This document shows, in pieces, positions 57,381-64,000 of a DNA stretch of 64,000 nucleotides. Origin of the DNA: Hyalangium ruber (GTDB lineage Bacteria; Myxococcota; Myxococcia; Myxococcales; Myxococcaceae); contig NZ_JAXIVS010000001.1 of the NCBI RefSeq assembly GCF_034259325.1, positions 992,001 to 1,056,000 on the forward strand. Reading direction: 5' to 3'. The translations under genes were made by a program, and so were the position numbers. The notes beneath the pieces are model-generated. The model did no database searches. It had not been told where the DNA came from and saw nothing but the letters and a program-made list of their open reading frames with translations. Positions within the stretch are counted from its first letter, which is position 1. Each line of letters opens with the position of its first letter.

Positions 57381-58781
57381 ATGGCTGACTTCGATCTGGT
57401 GGTGATTGGCTCCGGGCCGGCGGGCGAGCAGGGCGCGGTGCAGGCCGCGCGGCTGGGCAAGCGGGTGGTGGTGGTGGAGCGCGAGCCCGTGCTGGGTGGC
57501 ACCGCCGCCAACACCGGCACCCTGCCCTCCAAGACGCTGCGCGAGACGGCGCTCTACCTGTCCGGCTACCGCGCGCGCGGCCTCTACGGCGTGGAGAGCA
57601 GCCTGCGCCGCGAGGCCACGGTGTCCGACTTCCTCTACCGCGAGCGCCGGGTGAAGGAGCAGGAGCGCCTGCGCATCGCCCAGAACCTCCAGCGCCACGG
57701 CGTGGAGGTCATCCAGGGCAAGGGCGCGCTCGCGGACGCGCACACGGTGGTGGTGCGCGCGGAAGGCCTGCCCGAGCGCCGGCTCACGACCCACCACGTC
57801 CTCATCGCCACGGGCTCCACGCCCTTCCGGCCGCCGCTCTACCCGTTCGGCGATCCGCGCGTACACGACTCGGACGAGATCCTCGATCTACACGCGCTGC
57901 CGAGCGCCATGGTGGTGGTGGGCGGCGGCGTCATCGGCTGTGAGTACGCCTGCATGTTCGCCGCGCTGGGCATCCCCGTGACGCTGGTGGAGGTGAAGAA
58001 GGAGCTGTTGTCCTTCCTGGATGACGAGTTCTCCGCCCTGCTGGGCCAGCGCATGGAGGCGCTCGGCGTGCGGATGCGCTTCGGACACACGGTGGAGACC
58101 GTCCAGGTGCCGGAGCAGCAATCCGAGCCCATCCGGCTGACGATCTCGGGCGGAGAGCAGCTGGAGGTGGACCAGGTGCTGGTGGCCTCGGGCCGCTCCG
58201 CCAACACCGCCGGCCTGGGGCTGGAGACGCTCGGGGTGAAGCTCGGCGCCCGAGGGCAGGTGGAGGTGGGCCGCACCTACCAGACGTCCGTGCCACACAT
58301 CTACGCGGTGGGGGACGTCATCGGCTTTCCCGCGCTGGCCTCCACCTCCATGGAGCAGGCGCGCGTGGCGGTGCTGCACGCCTTTGGAGATCCCCACACG
58401 CCCTCGCCGGTGCTGCCCTATGGCATCTACACCATCCCCGAGGTCTCCATGGCCGGGGAGACGGAGGAGGGGCTGCGCACCCGGGGCGTGCCGTACGTGG
58501 CGGGCCGCGCCTCGTTCTCCACCAACCCGCGCGGGCAGATCATCGGCGAGACGCACGGGCTGCTGAAGCTGCTCTTCCACCGCGAGAGCCAGAAGCTGCT
58601 GGGGGTCCACGTGCTGGGCGAGCAGGCCTCGGAGCTGGTCCACGTGGGCCTCACGGCCCTGGTGGCCGGGGCGGGCGCCTCGCTCTTCGTGGAGACGTGC
58701 TTCAACTACCCGACGCTGTCGGAGACCTACAAGGCGGCCACCTACGACGCGCTGCACCAGCTCAAGGCCTGGACGCGCTGA
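57381..58781 (+). CDS. sthA: Si-specific NAD(P)+ transhydrogenase (SthA-like)
   Basis: The 466-residue product starts at ATG 57381 with GGAGGAG upstream. The FAD motif GSGPAG is at residues 10-15, followed by GGTAANTGTLPSKTLRETALYL, which lacks the redox Cys pair of dihydrolipoamide dehydrogenase and glutathione reductase. The NAD-binding motif is MVVVGGGVIGCEYACMFAALGIPVTLVE, and the C-terminal dimer domain is complete (ETCFNYPTLSETYKAATYDAL). This agrees with soluble pyridine nucleotide transhydrogenase, which balances NADPH and NADH. The surrounding genes do not suggest a pathway. Confidence 0.93.
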   Translation: MADFDLVVIGSGPAGEQGAVQAARLGKRVVVVEREPVLGGTAANTGTLPSKTLRETALYLSGYRARGLYGVESSLRREATVSDFLYRERRVKEQERLRIAQNLQRHGVEVIQGKGALADAHTVVVRAEGLPERRLTTHHVLIATGSTPFRPPLYPFGDPRVHDSDEILDLHALPSAMVVVGGGVIGCEYACMFAALGIPVTLVEVKKELLSFLDDEFSALLGQRMEALGVRMRFGHTVETVQVPEQQSEPIRLTISGGEQLEVDQVLVASGRSANTAGLGLETLGVKLGARGQVEVGRTYQTSVPHIYAVGDVIGFPALASTSMEQARVAVLHAFGDPHTPSPVLPYGIYTIPEVSMAGETEEGLRTRGVPYVAGRASFSTNPRGQIIGETHGLLKLLFHRESQKLLGVHVLGEQASELVHVGLTALVAGAGASLFVETCFNYPTLSETYKAATYDALHQLKAWTR

Positions 58782-58793
58782 GCGGCGCGCGGC

Positions 58794-59105
58794 TCAGCGG
58801 GACTGCTTGAGGCTGCCCACCGTGAGCCCCGTCGTGAGCGGGGCCACGCGGTTGATGCCATCCGCCGAGGAGCGGGCCAGCAGGGGGGCGGCGGCGGACG
58901 TGGAAGGGCTGGGAGGAGCGGCACTGCCCGAGGCACCGCGCAGCAGCTCGCGCGCGCGCTCCCAGCGCACCTTCTCCTCGGCGATGAGCTGGATGAGCTC
59001 CTCGCGCGCGACCGGGTCCGTCAGCTCGCTGGCCGCGGCCGCCACCTTGTCCAGGAACGGCATCAGGTAGCCAAAGTCCTTGTCGAACGCGCCAGGGTTC
59101 GCCAC
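58794..59105 (-). CDS. Small helical protein (unknown)
   Basis: The start is GTG 59105 with GGAGG 5 nt upstream. The product has 103 residues. The first half is helical and charged (NPGAFDKDFGYLMPFLDKVAAAASELTDPVAREELIQLIAEEKVRWERARELL). The second half is Ala/Ser/Pro-rich (GSAAPPSPSTSAAAPLLARS). There is no signal or membrane helix. No family was recognised. It lies 37 nt downstream of the DUF2156 gene on the same strand, so it may be co-transcribed with it, and is convergent with sthA (12 nt between stops). Confidence 0.65.
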   Translation of the reverse strand: MANPGAFDKDFGYLMPFLDKVAAAASELTDPVAREELIQLIAEEKVRWERARELLRGASGSAAPPSPSTSAAAPLLARSSADGINRVAPLTTGLTVGSLKQSR

Positions 59106-59142
59106 GAGTGCCTCCACGCAACAGTCGCCTCGGCACCCTACC

Positions 59143-60132
59143 CTACTCGGAAATACTTCGGCGGAGGATCTCCGAGAAAGGGACACGGCAGGCACGCAAC
59201 AGTGCGACCAGGGTCGTCACGGCCAATGGCGAGGGGGTGACGAAGTAGCGCTGGGGCGTCAGCCCGGGAAACTCGCCCTTGATCTCCCGGAGCCGTGCCA
59301 AGTACCCGACCCCCGCGAGCTGGCGTTCCAGCCAGCGCACCTGGCGGGCCAGCACGGGCGAGCAGCCCTCCGTGTCCACGTCCACCAACGGACAGAACCC
59401 CAGGGAGAGCTGCCGGACGCCTTCGGCTCGCAGGCGCGAGGCGAGCGTGGCGACCGCCGAGTAGTACACCCCCCACAGCCGTGTCGGCTCGAAGCGGATG
59501 AGGTTCAGCAGATAACCCTGGATGCGGCCACCGTCGAAGTACGGGTCCAGCACCGCATAGCCGAAAACGCGGGCCTCCTCGCCCTGCCGCAGGACGAACA
59601 TCCGCGCGAGCCCATCGTCGTCGAAGGAGAGCGGGCGGTTGAGGAAGTGCATCTCCACGGGTACCGCGCTCTTGCGCAGATAGGCCCGGGTGATGGCCCC
59701 GAGCCGCTCGCGCTCCGAAGCGCTCAGCTCCGAGGGACGCACCTCGAGCACCTCGAAGCCCGCCCGGGCGGCCTTCTTGAGCGCACCGCGCACCTTGGCG
59801 CTGGCCTCTCGCTCCGGCGCATCGAGCGCCATCACCTTGTCCACGCCCATGCCACTGACGCGAAAACGTCGCTCCTCCAGCCCGGCTGCGAGCATCGCGA
59901 CATCGCGGGGGAGGTAGAAGAAGAGCGGGCGCCTGCTGTCCCGGAGGAAGCGCTGGAGCAGCTCCGCCCGATCGCCGCTGGCACAGACGGGAGGACCCAG
60001 GGTCAGCTCGAACCCGAAGGCACGCTGGTAGGCGACGTAGCCAAAGGAGGTCTCGAAATAGGAGAGCCCCCCCTGGAGCGTCGAATACGAGATGGGATCC
60101 GAGCCGTAGGCCCGTACCAGGTCGTGCTTCAC
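59143..60132 (-). CDS. DUF2156 acyltransferase (GNAT fold, MprF C-terminal-like)
   Basis: The 329-residue product starts at ATG 60132. It reads like the DUF2156 family, the cytosolic domain that in MprF transfers amino acids from aminoacyl-tRNA to phosphatidylglycerol. Matches are the central VSGMGVDKVMALDAPE, the KVRGALKKAARAGFEVLEV region and the end GVRQLSLGFCPLVDVDTEG, a counterpart of the family's LGMAPL segment. There is no membrane domain, unlike MprF, so it is a stand-alone enzyme. It is divergent from a B12-dependent radical-SAM gene with only 27 bp between starts. The acyl donor and acceptor are unknown. Confidence 0.86.
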   Translation of the reverse strand: MKHDLVRAYGSDPISYSTLQGGLSYFETSFGYVAYQRAFGFELTLGPPVCASGDRAELLQRFLRDSRRPLFFYLPRDVAMLAAGLEERRFRVSGMGVDKVMALDAPEREASAKVRGALKKAARAGFEVLEVRPSELSASERERLGAITRAYLRKSAVPVEMHFLNRPLSFDDDGLARMFVLRQGEEARVFGYAVLDPYFDGGRIQGYLLNLIRFEPTRLWGVYYSAVATLASRLRAEGVRQLSLGFCPLVDVDTEGCSPVLARQVRWLERQLAGVGYLARLREIKGEFPGLTPQRYFVTPSPLAVTTLVALLRACRVPFSEILRRSISE

Positions 60133-60159
60133 GCCTCCACGTTACGGTATTTTCGAGCG

Positions 60160-61749
60160 GTGAACCGTCTCAAGGTCGGCGTCGTGGAGCTGTTGGCGCA
60201 CTCGGTCACCACGCCACTCCTGCGCCGCCGCGTCATCGCGCCCGGGACGGCGTCGGTGATGCCGCAGGCCGTGGCGGTCTGGGCGGAGGAGCTCGGCTGC
60301 GAGGTCCACTATGCCGTCTGGACGGCACAGGAAGACCTCGTGCGCCTGCTCCCGGACGGTCTGGACGTCGTGTTCATCTCCGCGTTCACCCGGGCCTCTT
60401 TCGTGGCGTACGCGCTCTCCTGCTCCCTCCGCGCGCGAGGCGTAGTGACCGTCCTCGGAGGTCCACACGCCCAGTCGTTCGCGGAGCACGCGCGCGAGCA
60501 CTTCGACTACATCTGCCAGACCACGGACCGCGCATTGATCGCCGGGCTCCTCGGAGCGCCCGAGCGGCAGGCGCGGGGTGTCATCCTCTCCGCCAAGGAA
60601 GGGCCCACCACGCTCCCCAGCGTCGCCCAGCGCGCGCGGTTCATCGAGCACTGCCTCCAGAAGGGTACCCACGTCCTACGGCTGGTGCCCATGCTGGGCA
60701 GCCTGGGCTGTCCGTACACCTGCAGCTTCTGCGTGGACGCCCCCACGCGGTGGCAGGGCCTGCCCGTGGAGCCGCTCATCGAGGACCTGCGCTTCATCGA
60801 GCGCCGCTGGGGGGCCGACACGCTGGTGGGGTGGCACGATCCAAACTTCGGCGTCCGCTTCGATGAATACCTGGGCGCCATCGAGAACTCGGGCACACGC
60901 CTGGTGCATTGCGCCCACATGAGCCTGTCCTTGATGAGCGCCGCGAACGTCCGCCGGCTGGGCAAGGCCCGCTTCGGGCTGCTGGGGCCTGGCATCGAGT
61001 CATGGTTCGACTTCTCCGACAAGTCGGGGCGCGCGCGGCTGCTGGGAGAGGCCAAGGTCCAGCACGTGGCGCAGGCCCTGAACGTCGTCCAGGCCGAGGT
61101 GCAGCACATCCAGACGAACATGATCGTCGGGCTGGACACGGACCAGGGAGACCTGCCCTGGGAGCTGACGAAGCGGCTCGTGGAACTCTCCCCCGGCATC
61201 TACCCGACCTACTTCCTGGTGACGAACTTCTACAACGCGCCGCTCAGCCGCGAGCTGCATGCCTCCGGACGCACGCTGGCCATGCCGTTCTCGCTGCTCG
61301 ACACCAACTGCTTCGGCAACGTGCGCCCTCTGCACTACTCCCCTGTCGAGCTCTACGACCGGCTCATCGGGCTCTACGAATTCGCCTACTCGTGGCGCGC
61401 CGTCCTCCGCCGCACGCGGGTGACTCCCGGGGGTTGGGGAAAGCTGGTGAACTTCGGCCGCAGCGTGGACGAAGGACGAGGCTTCATCGACTTCCACAAG
61501 CGCACCCGCGCTCGACTGGAGGAAGACCGCGAGCTGCGCGCGTTCTACGAAGGTGAGCGCGAGGCGCCGCCCACCTCCTTCATGGACGAGGTGAAGACCC
61601 AGCTCGGCCCCTACCAGGAGCTGCTGCCCGAAGCGCTCCTCTCCCCCGAGCGCTACGCCGAGTCCTTCCGCGCCTCCGCCGAAGCCGCCGTGCTCACGCT
61701 CCGCGAGCCCGTCGCCGGAGCCGTGCCCCGGGAGCGCGTGGCCTCCTGA
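60160..61749 (+). CDS. B12-binding-type radical-SAM enzyme
   Basis: The 529-residue product starts at GTG 60160; the frame is open further upstream inside the divergent gene, so GTG is the first fitting start, though its ribosome binding site is weak. Residues about 1-150 form a B12-binding-like domain (GVVELLAHSVTTPLLRRRVIAPGTASVMPQAVAVWAEELGCEVHY, VVFISAFTRASFVAYALSCSLRARGVVTVLGGPHAQSF). The 4Fe-4S motif is Cys184-x3-Cys188-x2-Cys191 in CPYTCSFC. The barrel continues to about 400 (HIQTNMIVGLDTDQGDLPW). The tail is helical. Such enzymes perform methylations or other radical reactions on lipids or peptides. It is divergent from the DUF2156 gene. Confidence 0.9.
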   Translation: MNRLKVGVVELLAHSVTTPLLRRRVIAPGTASVMPQAVAVWAEELGCEVHYAVWTAQEDLVRLLPDGLDVVFISAFTRASFVAYALSCSLRARGVVTVLGGPHAQSFAEHAREHFDYICQTTDRALIAGLLGAPERQARGVILSAKEGPTTLPSVAQRARFIEHCLQKGTHVLRLVPMLGSLGCPYTCSFCVDAPTRWQGLPVEPLIEDLRFIERRWGADTLVGWHDPNFGVRFDEYLGAIENSGTRLVHCAHMSLSLMSAANVRRLGKARFGLLGPGIESWFDFSDKSGRARLLGEAKVQHVAQALNVVQAEVQHIQTNMIVGLDTDQGDLPWELTKRLVELSPGIYPTYFLVTNFYNAPLSRELHASGRTLAMPFSLLDTNCFGNVRPLHYSPVELYDRLIGLYEFAYSWRAVLRRTRVTPGGWGKLVNFGRSVDEGRGFIDFHKRTRARLEEDRELRAFYEGEREAPPTSFMDEVKTQLGPYQELLPEALLSPERYAESFRASAEAAVLTLREPVAGAVPRERVAS

Positions 61750-61774
61750 AGGAGGCCCGCCACTCCGGGAGCGT

Positions 61775-63733
61775 CTACCCCACCGCCGCCTTGCGCACGG
61801 CGAGCTGCGAGGGGCTCGGAAGCTGCGAGAGCAGCCATTGGGCGGTGTCCGCCGTGATGGTCACGTGGGGGTCGTTCGCCGAGCCAATCCAGGCATCGAG
61901 GTCCGACGGCGTCTGCGTGACGTTCTGCACCAACTGCGTGGCGCTGTACACACTGAGCGAGCTCATCGACAGCGCGCTGATGGTCGGCACGAAGCACCCG
62001 TTCGCATACTGCATCGTGGCGTCGTAGCCGGCCTGGCTCACCGCGCTCGAGATGGTCTGGAAGAAGGCCGAGGTTCCACCGGGCGCGGAGTCGTAGGCGG
62101 GGGACTGCCCTCCCCAGGAGACGTAGTCGACCCAGCCCGCGACCTGGGTGGCGAAGACCACATAGTTCTCGCCCGAGCCGCCGGCCTGCGAGTCATAAAT
62201 GCCCGGCGAGGTGGCGATGTAGAACTGGAAGAACGGATCATTGACCTCGTACACCGGTTGGGACGCGGGCGGGGTGCCGTTGAGCGTCCCATCCGTCGCT
62301 CCGTTGGAGACGCCCAGCAGCTTGGGCTGCTTGGGGAACCCGCCCAGCGCGCTCAGGTTGGCGAGGAAGTTAGTGCGCAGCGGAGAGATCTCCTGGCTCG
62401 AGGAGGGACCCGGCACCCAGGAGATGAGCATCTCCTGCGCCGCCTTGCTGAGGAGCAGCTGGGAAGGCTGCTGGAGCCCGGCGCTCTGCGTCTTCTCCCA
62501 GAGCACCTGGACGAAGTACTGCACCCCGACGGGGACGTTCGCCCCGAGGTGCGGGGTGTCGTAGGAGACGTAGTGCGTCGTCTGGTGCGGCAGGTTGTTC
62601 TGCTCCATGTAGGCCAGGGCATAGCGCGCTACCAGCCCGCCCATGCTCGCGCCGCCGACGACGAGGTTCGTGCTCGAGGACGTCTGGGAGATGGCCTGCT
62701 GGATGGCGGCGATCATCACCCCGGCGTTGGCCTCCAGGTAGTTGGTGCCATCATCGAAGCCCACCAGCACCAGGTCGTAGCCCATCGCCAACAGGTTGGT
62801 GGCGAGGTTCTGCTCGTTGAAGATGTTCCAGAGCGTGTCGAGCGAATATCCCCCCGGGAAGCCCTCGGCCATGATGAGGGGGTTGGTGAGCTGGGTGTGG
62901 CCAGCCCCGTAGAGGACGTAGGCGTAGCCGGTCGCGGTCACGTTCTGGAAGGAGATGGGCGAGGAGAGCGCCCAGATGTCACTGGCGCCCGGAGCCGACG
63001 CCTCGGCCACCGTGAGGCGGCAGCTCGCGGCGAGGGCGGGCTGCTCCGGCCGGGCGCGAACGCGAATCACCTTGTCCCCGGCCGACGAATAGGTGACCGC
63101 GATGGGCTGGTCGAGTGTCACCGGCCGATAGCCGCCGCCGTCGCCGAAGTCGATCTCCACCGCCACGGGAGCAGCGCCGGGGTTGGTGAGCACCAGGTCG
63201 GAAGGCACGAGGTAGCGCACGGTCCGGCCGTAATTCACGTGCGGCAGCAGCTCGAGGACGCGGTACTCGTCCTTGCAGAGCGGAGAGGCGAAGAACGCCG
63301 TCTGCTCCTCCAGCCCTCCTCCGGGCTGGGAGAACTCCGCCTCGGGGAACTGTCCGCCCTCCCGGACGTAGGTACCCATGACGGCAGCGAGCTGCTTGCC
63401 CGGCGCCTGGTAGCGAAAGTGGCCCAGCGCGAGCGGGATGACGCCCTGCTCCCGGTGGCGGGCCGCCCGCGCCTCGACCTCCGACAGCGGCGGCAGCGTC
63501 GTGCCCGGAAGCGCGCCCTGGGTCAGCTCCATGTAGAACTGCTTCCACTGGGGCTGACTCAGGACGGGCGCGGCGCCGCCCTCACTCTGGCCGAGACGCA
63601 ACGGGGACAGTGTGGCCCCGTAGAGGATGCCGGTCGGCACGGTGGTCGGACTGGCCAGCTGCTTCAACCGCTGCTGGAGCTGCTGGATGCGCGTGGCGTT
63701 CTGGCGTGCGTTCTGAAGTGTCGTGCTCGTCAT
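61775..63733 (-). CDS. Lipase/esterase-like alpha/beta-hydrolase, no signal peptide
   Basis: The 652-residue product starts at ATG 63733 with GAGGA about 8 nt upstream. The first 40 residues are Gln-rich helices. Residues 130-230 form a beta-rich domain (NYGRTVRYLVPSDLVLTNPGAAPVAVEIDFGDGGGYRPVTL) like a PKD/Ig fold. The hydrolase core follows: PLIMAEGFPGGYSLDTLW, YDLVLVGFDDGTNYL with the strand-Asp, nucleophile Ser363 in GGASMGGLVARYAL and HYVSYDTPHLGANVPVG. The fold is that of lipases and PGAP1-like hydrolases (DUF676-like). There is no Sec signal, so it may be cytosolic or exported by another route. It follows the partial gene at 63767, 33 nt away, on the same strand. Confidence 0.85.
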   Translation of the reverse strand: MTSTTLQNARQNATRIQQLQQRLKQLASPTTVPTGILYGATLSPLRLGQSEGGAAPVLSQPQWKQFYMELTQGALPGTTLPPLSEVEARAARHREQGVIPLALGHFRYQAPGKQLAAVMGTYVREGGQFPEAEFSQPGGGLEEQTAFFASPLCKDEYRVLELLPHVNYGRTVRYLVPSDLVLTNPGAAPVAVEIDFGDGGGYRPVTLDQPIAVTYSSAGDKVIRVRARPEQPALAASCRLTVAEASAPGASDIWALSSPISFQNVTATGYAYVLYGAGHTQLTNPLIMAEGFPGGYSLDTLWNIFNEQNLATNLLAMGYDLVLVGFDDGTNYLEANAGVMIAAIQQAISQTSSSTNLVVGGASMGGLVARYALAYMEQNNLPHQTTHYVSYDTPHLGANVPVGVQYFVQVLWEKTQSAGLQQPSQLLLSKAAQEMLISWVPGPSSSQEISPLRTNFLANLSALGGFPKQPKLLGVSNGATDGTLNGTPPASQPVYEVNDPFFQFYIATSPGIYDSQAGGSGENYVVFATQVAGWVDYVSWGGQSPAYDSAPGGTSAFFQTISSAVSQAGYDATMQYANGCFVPTISALSMSSLSVYSATQLVQNVTQTPSDLDAWIGSANDPHVTITADTAQWLLSQLPSPSQLAVRKAAVG

Positions 63734-63766
63734 GGGAGTCCTCGAACGGGGCTGGGGCTGTTCGGG

Positions 63767-64000
63767 CTAGCGCGCCTGGAGGGCCTGACGAGGAGCCTGA
63801 CGACGACTCACGTTGCGCTGCGAGCGGGCCGCCACCTTGGCCGAGTCACTCGACATGTTCTCGAAGCAGAACGCCTGGCCGTTGGAGAGCTGGAACTCCA
63901 CCCCCTGGTACCAGAGGGCGCTCGAGCCGAACGGCGTCTGCACGAGCTTCCAACCATCGTTCAGCGCGTAGGTCACCTGCGTGTAGTCCCCATCCTGCGT
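63767..64000 (-). CDS. Protein running off the right edge (partial, 5' end missing)
   Basis: The C-terminal 77 residues are visible; the frame is open to the window edge (TQDGDYTQVTYALNDGWKL). The part ahead of the end is beta-rich (VQTPFGSSALWYQGVEFQLSNGQAFCFENMSS), then a basic tail rich in Arg and Gln (SQRNVSRRQAPRQALQAR). It is upstream of the lipase-like gene and probably in the same operon. No family can be given from this fragment. Confidence 0.7.
   Translation of the reverse strand, partial: TQDGDYTQVTYALNDGWKLVQTPFGSSALWYQGVEFQLSNGQAFCFENMSSDSAKVAARSQRNVSRRQAPRQALQAR

What the first reader, a model, noticed from the sequence alone, without database searches (positions are those of the whole stretch)
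59143..61749. Divergent DUF2156 acyltransferase and B12-radical-SAM pair with a 27-bp gap
Seen: starts at 60132 and 60160 face away with 27 bp between them, so at least one promoter must lie inside coding DNA. A small helical protein follows the DUF2156 gene. Known: DUF2156 domains transfer amino acids from tRNA to lipids, and B12-radical-SAM enzymes methylate or rearrange unactivated carbons. Inference: both may build one modified lipid or peptide. The link is by position only.
Basis: partly seen in the sequence, partly recalled or inferred. Interest (0 to 1): 0.55.

Follow-up and report, generated by a model that had tools for sequence, protein, structure and literature searches.

The report
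Mobile tRNA-dependent lipid-type biosynthesis cassette
Two enzyme genes that sit back to back in a soil bacterium turn out to be the edge of a small, apparently movable gene set, found in a few relatives, that may build an amino-acid-bearing small molecule or lipid.

Summary
Confirmed: a DUF2156 gene (59143-60132, -) and a radical-SAM gene (60160-61749, +), 27 bp apart. The "small helical protein" is EncD and not part of the pair: a sister genome has encD next to its usual neighbours, whereas here about 17.2 kb, starting at the DUF2156 stop, is inserted. The sister's cassette site is cassette-free here. Beyond the window DUF2156 faces an operon: SDR, R2-like diiron protein, 205-aa helical protein, acyltransferase, HemN-like radical SAM. 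The HemN-like gene occurs in 6 of 96 family genomes, all six with DUF2156. The first radical SAM is accessory: beside DUF2156 in 3 of 7. The tight gap is local (69 and 171 bp in two relatives). Best reading: a relocatable biosynthetic cassette in which DUF2156 adds an amino acid from tRNA to an acyl-containing acceptor that radical-SAM and diiron enzymes tailor. Product and chemistry are inferred. "B12" is uncertain: Pfam scores are under cut-off and the nearest solved fold is AprD4, a dehydratase.

The parts
58794..59117 (-). encD, encapsulin cargo ferric reductase (flank of the insertion, not part of the cassette)
   Evidence: NCBIfam NF058680 161.9 bits over cut-off 120; start by a codon model
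59116..59143 (.). left junction of the ~17.2-kb insertion (right junction near window coordinate 76379, beyond the window)
   Evidence: homology with the uninserted site of G088 fades here and resumes at L072 17380
59143..60132 (-). P0002, stand-alone DUF2156/LPG_synthase_C transferase, 329 aa
   Evidence: PF09924 95.6 bits; 7 of 96 family genomes; dN/dS 0.13-0.25
60133..60159 (.). 27-bp divergent gap, shorter than in relatives (69 bp in G088, 171 bp in G087); the GGAGG before the radical-SAM start of G088 has no counterpart here
60160..61749 (+). P0001, radical SAM protein with a B12-type N-terminal domain, 529 aa
   Evidence: CxxxCxxC invariant in 13 of 13; sub-cut-off Pfam hits; fold nearest AprD4 Z 18.9, then MgmA, TsrM, CysS, OxsB, TokK
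61775..63733 (-). 652-aa alpha/beta hydrolase (lipase/esterase-like), in the island but not in the cassette of G087 and G088
   Evidence: PF05057 24.7 bits over 20.3; gene maps
63767..64000 (-). C-terminal part of a 184-aa protein of unknown function that runs to 64321 beyond the window
   Evidence: L072 4768-5322

Best explanation
The pair is the left edge of a relocatable biosynthetic cassette. Shown: DUF2156 faces an operon encoding an R2-like diiron protein, a 205-aa helical protein, a PlsC-type acyltransferase and a HemN-like radical SAM enzyme (with an SDR in two genomes); the set was found in six genomes of the family, at three kinds of chromosomal site; the second radical SAM (P0001) is part of it in 3 of those 6. 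Inferred: the acyltransferase makes or uses an acylated acceptor, DUF2156 takes an amino acid from an aminoacyl-tRNA and puts it on that acceptor, the diiron protein oxidises it, and the radical SAM enzymes tailor unactivated carbons (methylation, cyclisation or, given P0001's AprD4-like fold, radical dehydration). The product would be an amino-acid-bearing lipid or small molecule. encD is only the neighbour at the insertion point, though the insertion puts encD 25 bp behind DUF2156 on the same strand, so read-through is possible (inferred).
For: DUF2156 in 7 of 96 family genomes and 7 of 195 phylum genomes; HemN-like gene in 6 of 96, all six with DUF2156, chance 7.6e-9 if independent, with the query genome counted and relatedness ignored; the close 205-aa gene in the same six of 147. 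Gene maps (G114 lacks the diiron gene). Sites: encD/EF-G in G000; RsmI-YraN side in G087 and G088; UbiA-DprE1 side in G108 and G114. Cassette-free counterpart sites in G088 and G000. Diiron ligand pattern E74, E104xxH107, E153, E199xxH202, invariant in 5 of 5. The DUF2156 fold family uses aminoacyl-tRNA (PMC2922099, PMC12945691, PMC9379638; passages). Purifying selection.
Against: P0001 unmatched in 4 of 7 DUF2156 genomes; DUF2156 without the other genes in G005 (58% identical, on an 11.6-kb contig); P0001 relatives without DUF2156 in G010 and G058. No diiron gene in the G114 cassette. Only six genomes, from three genera, so few independent events. No aminoacyl-tRNA synthetase, transporter or carrier protein appears among the island genes scanned. 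In this genome the P0001 start lacks the Shine-Dalgarno seen in G088, the acyltransferase start reads GTA where G087 has GTG, and the match to the second 205-aa copy holds a TGA: the local copy may be partly decayed. No chemistry was tested.
Confidence: 0.55

Rival explanations
1. P0002 is an aminoacyl-phosphatidylglycerol synthase without flippase (MprF-like) that changes membrane charge; the other genes remodel the same lipids.
For: PF09924 membership; weak profile matches to LpiA/MprF structures (7f47 E 6.6e-5, 6lv0 0.014, 4v34 0.059, 5vrv 0.33, 4v36 0.36); the Arg equivalent to R742 is invariant (R213) in 7 of 7; an acyltransferase in the cassette.
Against: No flippase part; NCBIfam MprF 24.9 bits against cut-off 600; the S684 position is Thr in 6 of 7 and Asn in 1 of 7; it falls outside the two MprF-like rows in a small tree with long branches; the genome has a second PF09924 protein, C4:806583-807440.
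Confidence: 0.2
2. The cassette is a VlmA-type azoxy or hydrazine pathway: DUF2156 as VlmA, the diiron protein as VlmB.
For: VlmA is PF09924 and VlmB/Ady8 is ferritin-like (PMC9379638, passages); VlmO and VlmB act together (PMC11705231, passages); P0002 hits, at 26.5%, a DUF2156 protein in a Streptomyces plasmid stretch with acyl-CoA dehydrogenase, flavin reductase and MmgE/PrpD genes.
Against: No VlmH/VlmR-type flavin N-hydroxylase and no VlmO-like (DUF4260) membrane protein among the 8 island proteins scanned; the diiron protein was not compared with VlmB itself.
Confidence: 0.1
3. P0001 has nothing to do with DUF2156: a stand-alone radical SAM gene landed in the divergent region between DUF2156 and the operon once and was inherited by three genomes.
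For: Its wider family shows no constant neighbour; unmatched in 4 of 7; G108 and G109 have DUF2156 directly opposite the diiron gene.
Against: Beside DUF2156 in 3 of 3 genomes with close copies, at two chromosomal sites; 9 bp upstream of the operon in G088; dN/dS 0.17-0.20.
Confidence: 0.3
4. The pair belongs with encD and iron storage.
For: encD lies 25 bp downstream of DUF2156 on the same strand.
Against: In the five other genomes with matches to both DUF2156 and EncD the two lie on different contigs, 5 of 5; among the 30 best encD loci (of 62 matches, own included) a SnoaL-like gene lies within 1.5 kb in 22 and EF-G in 26; G088 has the site without the insertion.
Confidence: 0.02

Closest known systems
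VlmA-type aminoacyl-tRNA transferases of azoxy pathways (valanimycin, azodyrecin)
   Same: PF09924 stand-alone transferase in a biosynthetic cluster, with a ferritin-like diiron protein nearby (PMC9379638, passages)
   Different: No VlmH/VlmR/VlmO equivalents among the 8 island proteins scanned; P0002 only 26.5% identical to a VlmA-like Streptomyces protein; two radical SAM enzymes and an acyltransferase instead
MprF / LpiA aminoacyl-phosphatidylglycerol synthases
   Same: Same catalytic domain family; invariant Arg equivalent to R742
   Different: No flippase domain; Ser684 position is Thr or Asn; patchy distribution within a gene cassette
Stand-alone DUF2156 proteins on plasmids of Rhizobium, Pararhizobium and Aureimonas
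   Same: Among 13 plasmid records matched, seven of the ten listed are of this kind, 28-32% identical; they share the EMxFLNRP-like motif
   Different: Divergent to an NAD(P)/FAD-dependent oxidoreductase in 3 of 3 looked at. The listed neighbours include an SDR in two and a ferritin-like protein in the Pararhizobium record, not compared with the cassette proteins; no radical SAM or acyltransferase is listed in the three stretches
AprD4, and the cobalamin radical SAM enzymes MgmA, TsrM, CysS, OxsB, TokK
   Same: Same N-terminal Rossmann plus radical SAM barrel architecture (Z 15.6-18.9, rmsd 3.0-4.1, 341-380 residues aligned)
   Different: 12-16% identity; AprD4, the nearest, is a diol dehydratase; MiaB and RimO, methylthiotransferases, follow at Z 15.2 and 14.4, so the fold alone does not tell the cofactor or the reaction

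Membership tests
LPG_synthase_C (PF09924, formerly DUF2156) | profile score over the curated cut-off | tested here: met
   95.6 bits, cut-off 27.5
MprF aminoacyl-PG synthase | N-terminal transmembrane flippase domain | tested here: not met
   P0002 is a 329-aa single domain; NF033480 24.9 bits, cut-off 600
MprF aminoacyl-PG synthase | Ser684 and Arg742 (B. licheniformis numbering; PMC11630815, passages) | tested here: not met
   Arg is R213, invariant; Ser is T148 in 6 of 7, Asn in 1 of 7. The equivalence rests on a weak profile alignment and the 58-residue spacing
VlmA-type azoxy cluster | VlmH/VlmR two-component hydroxylase and VlmO (DUF4260) beside VlmA | tested here: not met
   none among 8 island proteins; the 1456-aa and 280-aa proteins at the far end were not scanned
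VlmA-type azoxy cluster | VlmB-like ferritin-like diiron protein | tested here: inconclusive
   an R2-like diiron protein is present; no comparison with VlmB was made
Cobalamin-dependent radical SAM enzymes | CxxxCxxC cluster motif | tested here: met
   C184, C188, C191, invariant in 13 of 13
Cobalamin-dependent radical SAM enzymes | B12-binding domain that binds cobalamin | tested here: inconclusive
   PF02310 23.3 bits under cut-off 32.1; 12 of 13 relatives match at E 0.01; fold present but nearest is AprD4; binding not testable here
AurF N-oxygenase (PF11583), for the diiron protein | profile score over cut-off | tested here: met
   30.2 bits, cut-off 29.6: marginal
AurF N-oxygenase (PF11583), for the diiron protein | additional His ligand four residues before the last ExxH (recalled, from no call) | tested here: not met
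   residue 195 is Val in this genome, not His
EncD encapsulin cargo | NF058680 over the curated cut-off | tested here: met
   161.9 bits, cut-off 120

The most novel reading that the evidence does not exclude
The cassette makes an undescribed class of tRNA-derived aminoacyl lipid or small molecule in a few myxobacteria, assembled by an unusual team: a stand-alone MprF/VlmA-type transferase, an acyltransferase, an R2-like diiron oxygenase, two different radical SAM enzymes and a helical protein family for which no fold relative was detected.
Probability: 0.45. Interest if true: 0.65.

Novelty: new variant of a known kind. Interest (0 to 1): 0.48.

Why it matters
Aminoacyl-tRNA-dependent transferases of this fold mark pathways that divert charged tRNA into lipids and antibiotics. 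A compact set that keeps together at different chromosomal sites, with two radical SAM enzymes and a diiron protein, is a tractable target for finding a new compound class in myxobacteria.

Tried and rejected
Shared promoter as a conserved feature: rejected, gap lengths are 27, 69 and 171 bp in the three genomes with the pair. EncD as part of the system: rejected. A general partner of the radical-SAM family in other phyla: none found. In one search (93 loci: 13 from relatives and the own genome, 80 of 209 from the scan, many on short contigs) the widest clusters were the gene itself (90 loci) and overlapping-frame shadows of it (70, 68 and 45); the next occurred in 17 loci at scattered distances and orientations. 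A cluster that looks like a response regulator (by eye) occurred in 13 loci, always on the same strand, mostly 1.2-4.6 kb upstream: the nearest thing to a constant neighbour, not followed up. RNA families in 58000-64000: none over the gathering score. tRNA genes in L072: none. GC content of the island 0.678 against 0.696 (left flank) and 0.653 (right flank): no sign of foreign make-up. Fold of the 205-aa protein: model pLDDT 80, no Foldseek match at E 0.001 or below and best Z 3.2 in the second look; absence from these lists does not show a new fold. The 205-aa protein has no plasmid match and its alignment no PDB sequence match. Paper searches: DUF2156 with radical SAM, 0 papers; phosphatidylglycerol, aminoacyl-tRNA, lipid, radical SAM, biosynthetic gene cluster and acyltransferase together, 0 papers; the listings showed nothing on this cassette. 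The library is partial, so this is no proof of novelty. Names of flanking genes (SthA, EF-G, SnoaL-like, RsmI, YraN, trmD) are recognised by eye from the translations, not by a family search.
Full report
Observation. The two genes lie as described: P0002 59143-60132 (-) and P0001 60160-61749 (+), 27 bp apart. P0002 is a clear LPG_synthase_C (DUF2156) protein (95.6 bits, cut-off 27.5). P0001 matches the B12-binding and radical SAM models only under their cut-offs, but the CxxxCxxC cysteines are invariant in 13 of 13 aligned relatives and a model with mean pLDDT 79 (the cluster loop, residues 182-190, is under 50) has the Rossmann-plus-barrel architecture of this group: AprD4 Z 18.9, MgmA 17.1, TsrM 16.5, CysS 16.2, OxsB 16.2, TokK 15.6, but also MiaB 15.2 and RimO 14.4 (Foldseek ranks AprD4 first as well). 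AprD4 is a radical SAM diol dehydratase with an NADPH-dependent reductase partner (PMC5461906, passages), so neither cobalamin nor methylation may be assumed. Both genes are under purifying selection (dN/dS 0.13-0.25 for P0002, 0.17-0.20 for P0001 among G000, G088 and G087).

The small helical protein. It is EncD (NF058680, 161.9 bits, cut-off 120), the encapsulin-packaged ferric reductase (PMC12693112, passages). EncD matches occur in 61 of 96 family genomes, 58 of them over the cut-off. Among the 30 best encD loci (of 62 matches, own included), a gene that looks SnoaL-like (c30) lies within 1.5 kb in 22 and EF-G in 26; the four without EF-G are the own locus and three of genus g15. In the sister genome G088 encD and c30 are about 50-70 bp apart; in the window's genome the homology to that site ends at 59116-59143, at the DUF2156 stop codon, and resumes about 17.2 kb further on, near window coordinate 76379. 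The pair is therefore the left edge of an insertion. The other way round, the RsmI-YraN / trmD-side site that holds the cassette in G087 and G088 holds different genes in the window's genome. The simplest reading is that the cassette has moved; separate gains at each site are not excluded.

The gap. Relatives with both genes have 69 bp (G088) and 171 bp (G087) between the same starts. Compared with G088, this genome lacks about 42 bp that include GGAGG before the radical SAM start. No sigma-70-like site was found in 59900-60400. The tight gap is a local loss, not a conserved regulatory device.

The cassette. Reading on from the window (L072 = G000:C1:1051000-1070900): P0002 (-), P0001 (+), a 652-aa hydrolase (-), a 184-aa protein (-), a second copy of the 205-aa family (-), SDR (+), R2-like diiron protein (+), 205-aa protein (+), PlsC-type acyltransferase (+), HemN-like radical SAM (+). 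The diiron and 205-aa genes overlap by one base, the acyltransferase and HemN-like genes by four. G087 has the same order without the hydrolase pair; G088 has P0002, P0001, diiron, 205-aa, PlsC, HemN, with P0001 9 bp upstream of the diiron gene on the same strand; G108 and G109 have P0002 directly opposite diiron, 205-aa, PlsC, HemN and no P0001; G114 the same without the diiron gene; G005 has P0002 without these genes, on an 11.6-kb contig.

Distribution. P0002: 7 of 96 family genomes, 7 of 195 in the phylum with a profile. HemN-like protein: 6 of 96 at E 1e-40, all carrying P0002; chance of that 7.6e-9 if independent, with the query genome counted and without correction for relatedness. Close 205-aa protein (74% or more): the same six of 147; five more genomes have distant matches, read: in three of them the matching part is the end of a 343-376 aa protein, in one (G055) the gene is cut by the contig end, and in G041 no called gene matched. 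P0001: 4 of 96 at E 1e-30 and 6 of 145 in the order at E 1e-40, three of them beside P0002. Of the other three, G010 and G058 gave no P0002 match, and in G126 the gene lies on a 5.4-kb contig without it. Protein identities of the cassette genes between G000 and the other five genomes (69-88%, leaving out the second 205-aa copy and the SDR) resemble those of SthA (76-86% in four genomes), so vertical descent with losses and relocation is as possible as transfer within the family.

What P0002 may do. The family uses aminoacyl-tRNA to modify lipids (MprF) or small molecules (VlmA) (PMC2922099, PMC12945691, PMC9379638; passages). P0002 keeps the Arg equivalent to R742 of B. licheniformis MprF (R213, 7 of 7) but has Thr (6 of 7) or Asn (1 of 7) at the S684 position that PMC11630815 (passages) ties to aminoacyl-PG synthesis. 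In a 13-row tree its seven sequences form their own clade (99/99), nearest to stand-alone DUF2156 proteins of Rhizobium-type plasmids (83/82), away from the two MprF-like rows; several branches are long, so this is weak. The genome has a second PF09924 protein elsewhere. So P0002 is more likely a dedicated biosynthetic transferase than a general lipid lysyltransferase (inference).

Mechanism. The diiron protein has a complete R2-type ligand pattern (E74, E104xxH107, E153, E199xxH202) and scores just over the AurF cut-off (30.2 against 29.6), without AurF's extra His (that His is recalled); its best PDB profile match is a ribonucleotide reductase small subunit at E 0.013. The HemN-like protein has the CxxxCxxC motif and scores best against STM4012- and HemN-type models, under their cut-offs. 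The proposal is: the acyltransferase makes or uses the acyl acceptor, P0002 adds an amino acid from tRNA, the diiron and radical SAM enzymes tailor the product. Shown: gene content, co-occurrence, different sites, selection, folds. Inferred: every reaction and the product. The azoxy variant is disfavoured: no VlmH/VlmR/VlmO equivalents among 8 island proteins scanned.

Verdict. A local oddity (gap, EncD neighbour) on top of a real cassette for which I found no description. The paper searches that failed to find one were made; the library is partial.

Noticed in passing
58794-59117: EncD, encapsulin cargo ferric reductase; its usual upstream neighbours (SnoaL-like gene, EF-G, named by eye) lie 17 kb away here, and it now lies 25 bp behind DUF2156 on the same strand, so its expression may have changed.
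   Followed up: partly
L072:5446-6006 and L072:8340-8409 (beyond the window): Signs of decay in this genome's cassette: the match to the second 205-aa copy spans one TGA, and the acyltransferase start reads GTA where G087 has GTG.
   Followed up: partly
L072:12117-16487 (beyond the window): A 1456-aa protein that looks like a large helicase with a nuclease-like end (by eye, no family search), with lower GC3 (0.813) than its surroundings, lies in the same insertion.
   Followed up: no
L166, L167, L170: The 205-aa family also occurs as the end of 343-376 aa proteins that look membrane-bound at the N-terminus (by eye), each overlapping by four bases the gene before it, in three other myxobacterial genomes.
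   Followed up: partly
L183, L184, L185: Stand-alone DUF2156 genes on three alphaproteobacterial plasmids each lie divergent to an NAD(P)/FAD-dependent oxidoreductase: another possible functional pair.
   Followed up: no
L062 3928-8706, L064 4256-9034: In G108 and G114 the cassette lies next to UbiA/HAD, DprE1-like and SDR genes (an arabinan-type precursor set; only the L062 copies of UbiA and DprE1 were scanned).
   Followed up: no
13 of 93 loci: A response-regulator-like gene (by eye) lies on the same strand as relatives of P0001, mostly 1.2-4.6 kb upstream.
   Followed up: no
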